From: Paracoccaceae bacterium
Lineage (GTDB): Bacteria > Pseudomonadota > Alphaproteobacteria > Rhodobacterales > Rhodobacteraceae
Length of the DNA: 64,000 nucleotides
Direction of reading: 5' to 3'
Assembly: GCA_030697175.1 (NCBI GenBank)
Contig: JAUYQR010000003.1
Location: 267,955-331,954 of the forward strand
The notes under the pieces were generated by a model. The model saw nothing but the letters and a program-made list of their open reading frames with translations, was not told where the DNA came from and made no database searches. The position numbers and the translations under genes were made by a program. Positions 33,799 through 46,344 of the stretch are shown in pieces. Within the stretch, counting starts at the first letter, position 1. Each line of letters opens with the position of its first letter.

Positions 33799-33847
33799 TG
33801 GTGCACCCGACACGATTCGAACGTGTGGCCTCTGCCTTCGGAGGGCA
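33799..33847. repeat. Attachment site, distal copy (49-bp direct repeat)
   Basis: These 49 bases are identical to 46296-46344. They match the last 49 bases of the tRNA-Arg gene (discriminator, CCA end, acceptor, T-arm, variable loop and anticodon stem 3' side). The copy is a fragment with no tRNA function. The integrase gene ends 92 bases to its right. Confidence 0.95.
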
Positions 33848-33877
33848 TGACTGGGCTTTTTGTTGCTTTTATATTCA

Positions 33878-33895
33878 CCCTTTATTCCCTTTATT
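33878..33895. repeat. Tandem 9-bp repeat beside the distal att site
   Basis: CCCTTTATT occurs twice head to tail (33878-33886, 33887-33895) in an AT-rich tract between the att core and the integrase gene. Position and AT-richness suggest arm-type sites for the integrase or an accessory bending protein; this is inference. Confidence 0.5.
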
Positions 33896-33924
33896 TTCAC
33901 GGTTCGGCGGGGTTCGTTTTACTC

Positions 33925-33948
33925 GAAACTGTGGCGCGTCACAGTTTC
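33925..33948. terminator. Hairpin over the integrase stop codon
   Basis: GAAACTGTG-N6-CACAGTTTC is a perfect 9-bp stem that includes the integrase stop. On the + strand it is followed by TTTCCTTTCT-like sequence, but on the integrase strand the following bases are not T-rich, so it would be at best a weak terminator for int transcripts. Confidence 0.45.
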
Positions 33949-43599: not shown

Positions 43600-43764
43600 G
43601 TCTTACCTATTGGATGCTTGATCGAAATTTTTCTGTAGCGAGTTTTGAATCGCGGTCTGCGTCCCCCGCGATGCCGCCCCACCGGGAGGACCCCAAGGGA
43701 AACCGATCTTCGATCTAAGCCCATCTGCCCAGCCATGCGCCAAGGGGTCACCAAATGCCGAAAG

Positions 43765-43987
43765 GTGAACCATGGTGAACCATGTGAACCATGATTCCAT
43801 ATATTACCGCCCGAGAGTGTGGGGTTGCGTGATACCCCATGCATTGCCGTGTATTGTCTACCAGCTAGTCTTTTGGTGGATTCATGGTTCACATGTTTCA
43901 CCGAAGACATAACACCATGAAAAGGCGTGTGAATAGCGGTGAACCATCCGGGCAAATCATGGTTCACCGATGGTTCACATGGTTCAC
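43765..43987. other. Iteron cluster, candidate replication origin of the satellite
   Basis: The 9-mer GTGAACCAT occurs eight times exactly: direct at 43765, 43775, 43784 and 43939, and inverted (ATGGTTCAC) at 43884, 43959, 43970 and 43979, with a one-mismatch copy at 43893. Copies repeat at 9-11-base steps, about one helical turn. Two groups, three direct and then mainly inverted, flank 91 bases that are about 49% G+C, with a TGGGGT-N8-ACCCCA dyad inside. The 436-base stretch between the terminase small-subunit gene and the replicase gene otherwise holds no convincing gene. SaPI origins likewise consist of iterons flanking a melting region next to the replicase gene. A cos site may lie in 43600-43760. 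Confidence 0.75.
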
Positions 43988-44035
43988 CTTTCGTCGTCCT
44001 GCGGTCGATCAGAGTAGATGATTGATCCTGACCCC

Positions 44036-46303
44036 TCATTGTCGCTCCCAAAAGTTGCCCGCCTTAGTGTGACTGCACTTCCAGCCAACCAATCGAAGGA
44101 TGCCGCCAACCTGCCTTGAGTTGCCGCTTGTTTGTTGCCCGGTCGGAATTCCCAGAAGCGTCAGCACCTCTGAGACGGTCACCCTGTCCTTTCGTTCCAG
44201 ATCAAACCCGTCGCCGTTCGTAAGCCCGTCCAGGATGCGCCGGATAGGCTGTTCCCAGGGGTGTTCTTCGCGAGCCGACTCTTGCTCTATCCCCGCCTGC
44301 CGTTCCATTTCCGGGGTCAGGTGCCACGTCTCACCCGCATAAAAGGCAGCTAAGGCTTCGGCGAATAGCTGTTCCCGGTCGGCTGCAAGGCCGTCCGTGT
44401 CGATCTTTGCGCCGCACGTCACGGGCCAGAAGCGCCGCCCGCCGCTCGCATCCTTCAGAAAGGCGGTTTCATTGGTCGTCCCGATAAACACGCATTGCCG
44501 CGGTACAACGTCAGCCCGTCGCGCATAAGGTGCCCGGATCTCATCGGTGGACCGGCTCAGGAAGGCTTTCAGGTCTTCGGCTTCAGCCTTCCGAGACGGG
44601 GCAAGTTCGGCCAACTCGACCAGCCAATGCCCGCGCAAGTACAACCCGGCTTCCCGCGCCCCATCACGGATTGACGGCATATTGTCACCCGACCAGGCGC
44701 CGCCCAGGATTTGGCAGGCGGTTGATTTACCAATGCCCTGAGACCCGCCCAGCACTAGAACATGATCGTGCTTGCAGCCCGGCCGCATGACGCGCGCCAC
44801 CATTGCCACCAGAAAGGCGCGACCGACTGCCCGGCTGTAAGGCGTGGTCTCCGCCCCCATGTAATCGGTCAGCCACGTATCTAAGCGCCGCTTGCCGTCA
44901 TGGGGCGGCAACTGGGCCAGCCATTCCTTGACCGGGTGATAGCTGTTCAACTCCGCAACTGCCCGAACCGCGCCTGCCGTAAGTTCGGCTCCGACATTGT
45001 GCATTCCGGCTTGCTCGATCGCAACGCGGATCAAGCCTAGGTCCGCATCGTTGATCGGCCCGGCCCGCCATTCTTCTTGCCCGGTCATCTCGTTTTTGCG
45101 GATCGAGTAGCCTTTAAGGGCGTTCACCTTTTCCAGAAACACGATCGCATTGTTAAGGTTCGGCCTTGGGTCACCGTTCCCTGCCAGCATAATTTTCATT
45201 TTCGGCCGATCGGTCTCGGGCAGCGCGGGCAGGTCATCGAACTCATAAACTGGCTCTGGTGGCGTCCAGCCGTGACTCTTGGCGATTTGGAACAGTGTGC
45301 CAAGGCCGGTGCCCTGACCCTTGAAGCTTCGCCACTTGTTCCTGTGTTCCCGTTGATCGTATCTCGGGTCTTGCTTCGCCCAGTCGCACCACAAGCCAAA
45401 CGCCTCAGCGGACCCGCCGGCCGCGCTGTGCAAGGCCATTCCAACTTGGACCCATTCGGAATAATCCGTTGCGTCCGTGATCGCTTCCAAGGCGCTGCGA
45501 ATGCGGGGCCAGTTGGCTTCGGACGTGTCGGCCGTCTTAGTCGCTTCCTGTCGAATGTTGACCGTTGGCCCGATGCCTTGGCTAACTAAGTCAAAGTTGA
45601 TCGGGCGATGCCAGCGGTAGGGCTGCCCCGTGTCCGGATGGATCGACGGCGGAAGCACTCCCTGCTTTCCTGTTCCAAGCAACTCAATTTGCCAGCCTTC
45701 GCCCTTGGCCAGCTTTGCCGATCGAAGGGGCGTTGGATTGAAAAAGTAGAAGTGCCGCCCTGCCCCGCTACCGCTGATCACCTCTGGCAATTGGTATAGG
45801 TTAGGTGCCAGCCGGCGGGCGGCAGCCCATGCCGCGTCCGTCGCTTCCGGCCGATCAATATCGAGGTCCAAGACGTGCAGATAACCGGCGGGCGTGCGCG
45901 ACGGCTCGCCCAAGCGAATGCCGATATTGGCGCCTTCGATGTATTGCCGTTCCAGATCGGCGCGCGTGGCCTTTGGGGCCGTAGACCAGCCGTCCGCAAT
46001 CGGTCGCTTTTGGCGAGGGTGAAGCCAATGCAACGCAGCGCCGATCGACAGAAAACCGGAGGCCGCTTCTAGCGGAATTATACGTTTTGTGGTATCGAAT
46101 GCGTGGCTTTTGTCGAAGCTACCAAGTTCAACCCCGTCTCCGGCTGCAACCGGGGCGGGGTTTTCCTTTTGTCGCCTTCGGTTTTCTCCCAACAGGTCGC
46201 GTAACGGGTCAACCGATTCATGGGCAATCTGTGGCGAGACACAGATATCCGGCCCCAAAAGGTCGGCTAAAGTGTCGCTAAGTGATTGATTTAATTGGTG
46301 CAC
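44036..46303 (-). CDS. Satellite replicase: prim-pol, PriCT and VirE/SF3-like helicase domains
   Basis: 755 residues from GTG 46303. The primase-polymerase domain spans about 78-240: acidic motif VLDLDID (D146, D148) and SGSGAGRHFYFF. A PriCT-2 domain follows (263-345: WPRIRSALEAITDATDYSEW). The C-terminal VirE/virulence-associated helicase has Walker A GGSQGIGKST (519-528), Walker B region WLVELAEL, and GTTNETAFLKDASGGRRFWP. It would start and unwind replication at the nearby iterons. The GTG lies inside the att core, in the tRNA CCA end; the 75 residues before the first domain are poorly conserved and no ribosome site marks a later start, so the true start is unsure. In the excised circle its upstream sequence would be the 3' flank of int instead of the tRNA gene. 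Confidence 0.88.
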   Translation of the reverse strand: MHQLNQSLSDTLADLLGPDICVSPQIAHESVDPLRDLLGENRRRQKENPAPVAAGDGVELGSFDKSHAFDTTKRIIPLEAASGFLSIGAALHWLHPRQKRPIADGWSTAPKATRADLERQYIEGANIGIRLGEPSRTPAGYLHVLDLDIDRPEATDAAWAAARRLAPNLYQLPEVISGSGAGRHFYFFNPTPLRSAKLAKGEGWQIELLGTGKQGVLPPSIHPDTGQPYRWHRPINFDLVSQGIGPTVNIRQEATKTADTSEANWPRIRSALEAITDATDYSEWVQVGMALHSAAGGSAEAFGLWCDWAKQDPRYDQREHRNKWRSFKGQGTGLGTLFQIAKSHGWTPPEPVYEFDDLPALPETDRPKMKIMLAGNGDPRPNLNNAIVFLEKVNALKGYSIRKNEMTGQEEWRAGPINDADLGLIRVAIEQAGMHNVGAELTAGAVRAVAELNSYHPVKEWLAQLPPHDGKRRLDTWLTDYMGAETTPYSRAVGRAFLVAMVARVMRPGCKHDHVLVLGGSQGIGKSTACQILGGAWSGDNMPSIRDGAREAGLYLRGHWLVELAELAPSRKAEAEDLKAFLSRSTDEIRAPYARRADVVPRQCVFIGTTNETAFLKDASGGRRFWPVTCGAKIDTDGLAADREQLFAEALAAFYAGETWHLTPEMERQAGIEQESAREEHPWEQPIRRILDGLTNGDGFDLERKDRVTVSEVLTLLGIPTGQQTSGNSRQVGGILRLVGWKCSHTKAGNFWERQ
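46130..46162 (+). terminator. Terminator-like hairpin within the replicase 5' region
   Basis: AACCCCG (46130-46136) pairs with CGGGGTT (46156-46162), with an inner CCGG/CCGG pair, and is followed on the + strand by TTCCTTTT. Read on the + strand it has terminator form, but it lies opposite the presumed coding start of the replicase and no rightward gene precedes it. It could stop antisense transcripts or mark that the first 60 replicase codons are really untranslated. Confidence 0.4.
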
Positions 46304-46344
46304 CCGACACGATTCGAACGTGTGGCCTCTGCCTTCGGAGGGCA
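46296..46344. repeat. Attachment site, tRNA-side copy (49-bp direct repeat)
   Basis: Identical over 49 bases to 33799-33847. It includes the tRNA-Arg 3' half from the CCA end up to the anticodon stem, so insertion restored an intact tRNA gene here. Flanking bases differ from the other copy on both sides (T versus A on the left, G versus T on the right), which fixes the repeat ends. Confidence 0.95.

What the first reader, a model, noticed from the sequence alone, without database searches (positions are those of the whole stretch)
33799..46344. Capsid-forming phage satellite (cf-PICI type) in a tRNA-Arg gene of a Rhodobacterales-like chromosome
Seen: an intact integrase, Xis/AlpA-like gene, prim-pol/helicase, iteron cluster, both terminase subunits, portal, protease/major capsid fusion, connector and decoration genes, bounded by perfect 49-bp att repeats, with no tail, baseplate or lysis gene in 12.5 kb. 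Known: cf-PICIs make and pack their own small capsids and borrow only tails from a helper phage. Inference: this element is such a satellite. I know of none characterised in Rhodobacterales. The order is also odd: replicase at one end, integrase at the other, and cargo inserted between terminase and portal.
Basis: partly seen in the sequence, partly recalled or inferred. Interest (0 to 1): 0.93.

Follow-up and report, generated by a model that had tools for sequence, protein, structure and literature searches.

The report
Tail-less capsid-forming phage satellite family
This 12.5-kb element sits in a bacterial tRNA gene and carries genes for a phage head and DNA packaging but none recognisable for a tail or for lysis; it likely spreads by making its own small heads and borrowing tails from a helper phage, and close kin of its capsid gene occur in about one in nine sampled species of its bacterial family.

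Summary
No tail or lysis gene was recognised. It is no lone deleted prophage: a second element sits in the same genome at tRNA-Ser, and the order TerS-TerL-cargo-portal-capsid-adaptor-decoration recurs in other Rhodobacteraceae. Fifteen bounded or circular elements are 11.6-12.8 kb (one CRISPR-bearing relative exceeds 16 kb). In tailed relatives the adaptor gene lies between TerL and portal, in satellites after the capsid gene. Satellite capsids form one side of a tree against 13 phage or prophage rows (100/98). Genes that could be tested are under purifying selection. A conserved motif before TerS is a candidate cos site, not found in the tailed relatives held. The cargo slot can hold defence systems, in one relative type II CRISPR-Cas. 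It works like a cf-PICI but lacks the HNH gene listed for them and has a fused protease/capsid: most likely a separate lineage. Packaging and helper dependence are inferred; no intact helper was found in this genome.

The parts
33799..33847 (-). att repeat, int side (49 bp, identical to the tRNA 3' part)
46296..46344 (-). att repeat, tRNA side
46296..46372 (-). tRNA-Arg(CCG), the integration target
   Evidence: ARAGORN
44036..46303 (-). replicase: Prim-Pol, PriCT_2, VapE-like helicase (the first listed start lies inside the att repeat; the real start is probably further in)
   Evidence: dN/dS 0.13-0.16
43759..43993 (.). iteron cluster (ATGGTTCAC, inverted copies), candidate replication origin
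43652..43703 (-). candidate cos motif upstream of terS, conserved across satellites
43060..43599 (-). terminase small subunit (Nu1-like)
   Evidence: phrog_57 E 3e-26
41313..43154 (-). terminase large subunit, gpA type
   Evidence: PF05876, PF20454
40485..41177 (-). cargo ORF 230 aa with C-terminal zinc-ribbon-like part (below cut-off), function unknown; 96% identical copy in L053
40153..40389 (+). cargo ORF 78 aa, homologue in the second element of this genome (85%)
39773..40081 (+). cargo ORF 102 aa, unknown
38794..39345 (-). orf183: predicted MerR/CvkR-like DNA-binding regulator in a fixed place before the portal gene
37439..38797 (-). portal, lambda family
   Evidence: PF05136; TIGR01539
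35701..37497 (-). prohead protease / major capsid fusion
   Evidence: NF045541; PF25209; phrog_4523
35482..35697 (-). gpW-like head-tail adaptor (Ad1)
   Evidence: NF047331; phrog_2545
35151..35543 (-). capsid decoration/cement protein (the start is probably internal)
   Evidence: PF09956; phrog_122
34841..35218 (-). AlpA/excisionase-like HTH protein (below cut-off; the start is probably internal)
33939..35000 (-). tyrosine integrase, 353 aa
   Evidence: PF00589; phrog_1

Best explanation
The element at 33,799-46,344 is likely a capsid-forming phage satellite: it encodes its own integrase, replicase, terminase and head proteins, has no recognisable tail or lysis gene, and is predicted to need only a helper phage's neck, tail and lysis functions to spread. 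Inferred course: after a helper trigger the integrase and the AlpA/Xis-like protein excise the element at the tRNA-Arg repeats; the replicase acts at the iterons; TerS/TerL cut at the conserved motif before terS and load one 12.5-kb genome into a small head made of the element's own portal, capsid, adaptor and decoration proteins. The satellite's share ends at the gpW-like adaptor, so head-closure protein, tail and lysis would come from the helper, most plausibly a siphophage of the RcKemmy type, which carries a related head. Shown here: gene content, att sites, recurrence, gene order, one capsid clade against the phages sampled, purifying selection. Inferred: excision, cos cutting, small head, tail borrowing, helper identity, and that orf183 (MerR/CvkR-like by model) controls the element.
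For: Exact att repeats at the tRNA. Full head and packaging set. A second element in the same genome at tRNA-Ser, TerL 95% and capsid 65% identical. Same order in relatives next to tRNA-Tyr, -Ser, -Met, -Arg, -Cys and -Lys. Fifteen bounded or circular elements of 11,602-12,818 bp, mean 12,174. No tail, connector or lysin family among 107 small ORFs of 16 elements (24 families, all listed; one lone 'virion structural protein' hit and one weak spanin-like hit, E 0.0032); the same library names head closure, tail terminator, minor tail protein, chaperone and tape measure in a tailed relative. Six tail and neck queries: no hit at E 1e-3 in 53 loci (eight are copies). Adaptor after capsid in 70 of 93 loci. 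Capsid tree: 32 satellites against 13 phage or prophage rows, 100/98. dN/dS 0.05-0.32 in 19 of 20 gene comparisons, the twentieth saturated at synonymous sites; integrase and orf183 gave no comparison. Candidate cos motif before terS.
Against: No experiment. No intact helper prophage was seen in this genome: its RcKemmy-type tail module has lost the head genes and most of the head-closure gene. Only 18 of 44 satellite-bearing genomes carry such a tape-measure gene; the association (p 0.003) is not corrected for kinship or prophage load. Size is not always near 12 kb: the CRISPR-bearing relative L079 measures at least 16.4 kb from replicase to integrase (L079 and L135 put together by their overlap), and L134 about 14.7 kb with an insertion in its portal gene. 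G141 holds satellite head genes fused to tail fragments, a broken relic. Most cargo ORFs have no family match, so an unrecognised tail-related protein cannot be excluded.
Confidence: 0.85

Rival explanations
1. It is a decayed prophage that has lost its tail and lysis genes.
For: Head genes are homologous to those of full siphophages; a decapitated prophage and a broken satellite/tail fusion exist, so such losses do happen.
Against: Similar size, same order and the same place of the adaptor gene in many elements at different tRNA genes; capsids on one side of the tree against all 13 phage or prophage rows; purifying selection; att sites intact.
Confidence: 0.05
2. The satellite heads use tails of the host's own gene transfer agent rather than of a phage.
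For: The only HK97-type portal of this genome lies in a cluster with a prohead protease and a TIGR02215 connector that looks like a Rhodobacterales GTA (GTA identity recalled, not tested); no intact helper prophage was found.
Against: The satellite adaptor is gpW-like, whereas the GTA-like cluster has another connector family, so the neck parts do not match; related heads with gpW-like adaptors belong to tailed phages such as RcKemmy.
Confidence: 0.05
3. It is a true member of the known cf-PICI family rather than a separate lineage of the same kind.
For: Same way of life by gene content: integrase, AlpA-like, replicase, terminases, portal, protease, capsid, connector, no tail.
Against: No HNH gene in this element, which PMC10690885 lists for cf-PICIs; protease fused to capsid; PMC10803314 names no Alphaproteobacteria among the main cf-PICI hosts; no cf-PICI sequence was at hand for a direct comparison.
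Confidence: 0.1

Closest known systems
capsid-forming PICIs (cf-PICIs, e.g. EcCIEDL933)
   Same: Own terminases, portal, protease, capsid and connector; integrase and replicase; no tail; similar size (14 kb on average for cf-PICIs, PMC10803314, passages)
   Different: No HNH gene; protease fused to a gpT/capsid_4-type capsid; gpA-type TerL; replicase and integrase at opposite ends; cargo slot between TerL and portal; alphaproteobacterial host. No direct sequence comparison was made
MulchRoom and MiniFlayer satellites of Streptomyces phages (PMC10690885, passages)
   Same: Capsid and packaging genes of their own
   Different: Those lack obvious replicases, have terminal repeats and virulent helpers; here a replicase is present and att sites lie in a tRNA gene
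RcKemmy-type Rhodobacter siphophages (MW677517 and kin)
   Same: Homologous TerL, portal, capsid and decoration genes (capsid 32-34% identical); gpW-like adaptor
   Different: About 41 kb with tail genes; adaptor gene between TerL and portal; satellite cos-like motif not found in the 16.5 kb held
P4-like satellites and classical PICIs
   Same: About 11-12 kb for P4, tRNA integration, primase/helicase replicase (recalled)
   Different: They take capsids from the helper; this one encodes its own
CvkR (MerR-type repressor of type V-K CAST, PDB 7xn2)
   Different: 9% identity; different kind of element; ligand and DNA site unknown; plain Foldseek gave no match at E 0.001

Membership tests
cf-PICI | own capsid, portal, protease, TerS and TerL | tested here: met
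cf-PICI | no tail genes | tested here: met
   for this element; for it and relatives, with tailed relatives as positive control
cf-PICI | integrase and primase-replicase | tested here: met
cf-PICI | AlpA-type regulator | tested here: inconclusive
   HTH_17 and excise-domain matches below cut-off
cf-PICI | HNH endonuclease in the packaging module (as listed in PMC10690885) | tested here: not met
   no HNH match among the window proteins scanned; one relative has an HNH gene, but in a cargo methyltransferase cluster
cf-PICI | capsid within one of the three known cf-PICI clades | not tested
   no characterised cf-PICI sequence was obtained
cf-PICI | helper-induced excision and packing into small heads with helper tails | not testable with these tools
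   needs an experiment
temperate siphophage (RcKemmy type) | tail and lysis modules after the head genes | tested here: not met
deleted prophage | close relatives with the same head joined to a tail at the same site | tested here: not met
   within the DNA held; single broken fusion in G141
P4-like satellite or classical PICI | no capsid gene of its own | tested here: not met

The most novel reading that the evidence does not exclude
An unreported, separately evolved lineage of capsid-forming satellites lives across Rhodobacteraceae and into other alphaproteobacterial families. It has its own head clade, its own cos, exchangeable iterons, a CvkR-like switch and a dedicated slot for defence cargo (restriction systems, even a type II CRISPR-Cas locus), and it hands over to the helper exactly between the gpW-like adaptor and the head-closure protein.
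Probability: 0.6. Interest if true: 0.85.

Novelty: new variant of a known kind. Interest (0 to 1): 0.78.

Why it matters
Capsid-forming satellites are reported from three capsid radiations (PMC11389934), mainly in Gram-positive bacteria and gammaproteobacteria (host list in PMC10803314). A further lineage with a different head module, whose capsid gene is carried by about one in nine sampled species of one alphaproteobacterial family, would show that turning a phage head into a satellite is a repeated and successful step. The place of the adaptor gene suggests where satellite-made and helper-made parts meet, which can be tested at the bench in Rhodobacter, a genus with many sequenced phages. 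The cargo slot points to satellites as carriers of phage defence, one of them with its own CRISPR-Cas.

Tried and rejected
Decayed prophage: rejected on recurrence, gene order, clade and selection. CRISPR array of L079: no match in the phage collection and none at E 0.05 in the loci held. Two spacer pieces were scanned in viral contigs: they found the same contig, an identical contig from a second metagenome (L135), and one 18-base partial match (L137) that I do not count. Direct comparison with EcCIEDL933: not achieved. The paper describing it (looked up by a recalled DOI) and two other satellite papers are not held, and a guessed region of the EDL933 chromosome did not show the element. Literature searches bearing on satellites of this kind in Rhodobacterales or Alphaproteobacteria: no listed title or abstract start names one. 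This covers only the held open-licence library; I read passages of PMC11389934, PMC10803314, PMC10690885, PMC9938897 and PMC13345588 and only listings of the rest.

Motif caveats: the cos-like pattern was built from these same elements. In one search it was found in the window and in 25 of 31 relatives' loci in which terS was found (eight of the 31 are IMG/VR copies of isolate loci; without them 18 of 23). Misses: L028 and its copy L058, L037, L078, and two loci cut near terS (L054, L079; for the L079 element the longer stretches L135 and L136 do show it). A notebook entry of mine gives 28 of 33, which is a miscount. Several tailed phage loci are held without the whole stretch before terS, so their lack of the motif is only partly tested. 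In L037 and L043 the att pair taken is the second-longest repeat, chosen because it lies at the tRNA end; att repeats of 14-16 bp would be weak alone. orf183 E-values come from a database of 24 sequences and flatter. PHROGs showed 25 of 63 families, so one search was run without integrase- and replicase-sized ORFs, with a few small ORFs added, to see the full list. PADLOC showed 25 of 150 families. The labels 'satellite' and 'phage' in the trees were set by me beforehand; of the 13 phage or prophage rows, 10 show tail genes here (L048-L050, L084, L087, L121-L125), while L051, L126 and L127 were not checked for tails; four satellite rows (L075, L099, L107, L110) have no detected adaptor.
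Full report
Observation. The window holds two identical 49-bp repeats, 33799-33847 and 46296-46344. The second is the 3' part of tRNA-Arg(CCG) 46296-46372. A 49-base exact repeat 12.5 kb apart at a tRNA end is not chance. Between them, reading down from the tRNA, lie a Prim-Pol/PriCT_2/VapE replicase, an iteron cluster, TerS, gpA-type TerL, a cargo stretch, a small gene (orf183), lambda-type portal, prohead protease/major capsid fusion, gpW-like adaptor, decoration protein, an AlpA/Xis-like HTH gene and a tyrosine integrase. 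Nothing scanned in the element matched a tail, baseplate or lysis family.

A second copy and a family. The same genome (G000, 3.67 Mb, 24 contigs) has a second element on contig C21 at tRNA-Ser: TerL 95%, TerS 97%, adaptor 97%, decoration 84%, portal 77%, replicase 76%, capsid 65% identical. The uneven identity suggests exchange between such elements (inference). Named relatives include Rhodovulum steppense, Thioclava atlantica, Paracoccus lutimaris, P. nototheniae, Celeribacter neptunius, Gemmobacter serpentinus, G. aquatilis, Rhodobacter viridis, Falsigemmobacter faecalis and, outside the order, Martelella radicis. The window's own family is unnamed in the genome tool; I take it for Rhodobacteraceae from these relatives. 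Of 394 genomes of that family, one per species, 106 had a related capsid gene at E 1e-3 and 44 had a satellite-type one at E 1.3e-86 or better (the cut was set by me for at the gap between the two identity groups; at least four more genomes with split genes were left out). Gene order was looked at in 31 of these 44 genomes (loci, mapped): the adaptor follows the capsid gene in 28 and was not detected in three. In 385 genomes spread over the class, 5 reached E 1e-80: two in this family and three in other families; these three show portal-capsid-adaptor in the same order.

Boundaries and size. Thirteen elements have direct repeats of 14-51 bp at their ends, 12 of them at an annotated tRNA end. 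With one metagenome contig that has 25-bp repeats (L065) and one circular contig (L036), the sizes of 15 elements run from 11,602 to 12,818 bp, mean 12,174, s.d. 370. That narrow range fits one genome per small head (inference). Two relatives do not fit it: L079, at least 16.4 kb from replicase to integrase, and L134, about 14.7 kb with an insertion in the portal gene.

No tail. Six tail and neck proteins of a tailed relative (L048) gave no hit at E 1e-3 in 53 satellite-type loci, the window among them and eight of them copies, while they hit tailed relatives. PHROGs on 135 non-core ORFs of 16 elements showed no tail family among the first 25 of 63. On 107 smaller ORFs of the same elements all 24 families were listed: no tail, connector or lysin; one 'virion structural protein' and one weak spanin-like match, one ORF each. 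The control L048 was recognised as head closure, tail terminator, minor tail protein, chaperone and tape measure.

Gene order and clade. In tailed relatives the gpW-like adaptor lies between TerL and portal: RcKemmy, Paracoccus phage Psul1, Stenotrophomonas phage S1, Microcystis phage yong2 and Vibrio phage 1.055 by annotation, and L048-L051. In satellites it lies between capsid and decoration. By tblastn over 93 loci with a related capsid gene, the adaptor is after the capsid gene in 70, before it in 1 (L051), and not detected in 22, 13 of them phage or prophage loci whose adaptor this search does not reach (three pairs among the 70 are the same place fetched twice). A capsid tree of 83 rows puts all 66 satellite rows on one side and all 13 phage or prophage rows on the other, with weak support (77); two of four plasmid-borne rows fall on each side. 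A careful tree of 45 rows, 32 of the 66 satellites picked by me for spread and all 13 phage or prophage rows, the four plasmid rows left out, gives the satellite side 100/98. A TerL tree agrees: 27 satellites on one side (support 79), 26 of them at 100. Among 50,697 phage records the capsid has 108 matches, all under 60%.

Selection. In 20 gene comparisons with L053, L040 and L061, dN/dS was 0.05-0.32 in 19; one pair was saturated at synonymous sites. Replicase, TerS, TerL, portal, capsid, adaptor, decoration and the 230-aa cargo gene were covered; integrase and orf183 had no match close enough. The genes tested are kept, not decaying.

Origin and packaging signals. Iteron letters differ between elements (ATGGTTCAC here, CTGACCCCA in the second element), which could let both live in one cell (inference). 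A block upstream of terS is shared by 16 aligned elements with 16 invariant columns. A pattern made from it occurs once in the 64-kb window and once in each of 25 of 31 relatives' loci with a detected terS, each time just upstream of it. In 1.5 Mb of held sequence, 138 loci with overlaps and copies among them, no hit fell in a tailed relative. I read it as the cos site.

Cargo. Thirty-eight loci in which both TerL and portal were found with a usable gap have a stretch between them of 337-6,662 bp, median 1.7 kb, with lower G+C than the core in 38 of 38 (one locus dropped as odd, eight of the 38 are copies, and L085 with 337 bp hardly has a slot). Most slot ORFs match nothing: of 75 scanned, Pfam gave 12 families, each in one ORF. 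At least three loci carry defence genes: L042 an Orf5/HEC-06-like protein, L083 (Paracoccus sp. SMMA_5_TC) a methyltransferase/HNH cluster, and L079 a type II CRISPR locus with a Cas9-like ORF of 832 aa followed by an overlapping ORF of 298 aa without a PADLOC match, Cas1, Cas2 and an array of 11 repeats.

Helper. The genome has no third lambda-type portal and no third gpA TerL. It does have a tail module related to that of L048 on contig C23 (tape measure 74%, tail terminator 85% identical), but this is cut inside the head-closure gene (last 21 residues left), and the contig ends 0.9 kb on, in DNA that by my reading of a recalled motif holds a methyltransferase-like gene. One HK97-type portal lies in a GTA-like cluster (GTA identity recalled). 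Over 394 genomes, 18 of 44 with a satellite-type capsid and 70 of 350 without carry this tape-measure type at E 1e-50 (odds ratio 2.8, p 0.003), uncorrected for kinship and prophage load. The cf-PICI EcCIEDL933 is likewise reported as mobilised by phages not native to its strain (PMC11389934, passages), so a missing resident helper is no contradiction.

Comparison with the known. [quoted passage not shown] This element shares the plan but has no HNH gene, a fused protease/capsid and an alphaproteobacterial host. I therefore call it cf-PICI-like and, most likely, a separate lineage; the tree that would settle it could not be made here.

Noticed in passing
L079:2236-7622 (IMGVR_UViG_3300010013_000013); same DNA in L135: Type II CRISPR-Cas locus (Cas9-like ORF plus an overlapping ORF, Cas1, Cas2, 11-repeat array) in the cargo slot of a satellite relative.
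   Followed up: partly
L036:1-12094 (Falsigemmobacter faecalis): Satellite relative as a circular 12,049-bp contig (45-bp terminal overlap) with no integrase-sized ORF but with a RepL-like match: possibly a plasmid form.
   Followed up: partly
G000:C23:148000-163700 (L092, L093): RcKemmy-type tail module in the same genome that has lost its head genes; cut inside the head-closure gene.
   Followed up: yes
L130 and L118 (G141:C1): Broken fusion: tape-measure start (residues 1-47) runs into a satellite portal at residue 231, next to tRNA-Met.
   Followed up: yes
L138:4-1268: In a genome of another family a TerL match follows directly after the adaptor and a short decoration match, a permuted order or a tandem element.
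   Followed up: no
L082 (Rhodovastum atsumiense plasmid RHOAph, 10,690 bp): Small plasmid with a protease/capsid fusion gene, ParA and a toxin-antitoxin pair, but no portal or TerL found by tblastn.
   Followed up: no
L134:8338-10836: Insertion of about 2.5 kb inside the portal gene of a satellite relative between tRNA-Lys genes.
   Followed up: no
window 32444-33589: Fragments next to the element (HMBD and YHS domains, then a short ORF) that look like a cut copper-transport ATPase (recalled resemblance).
   Followed up: no
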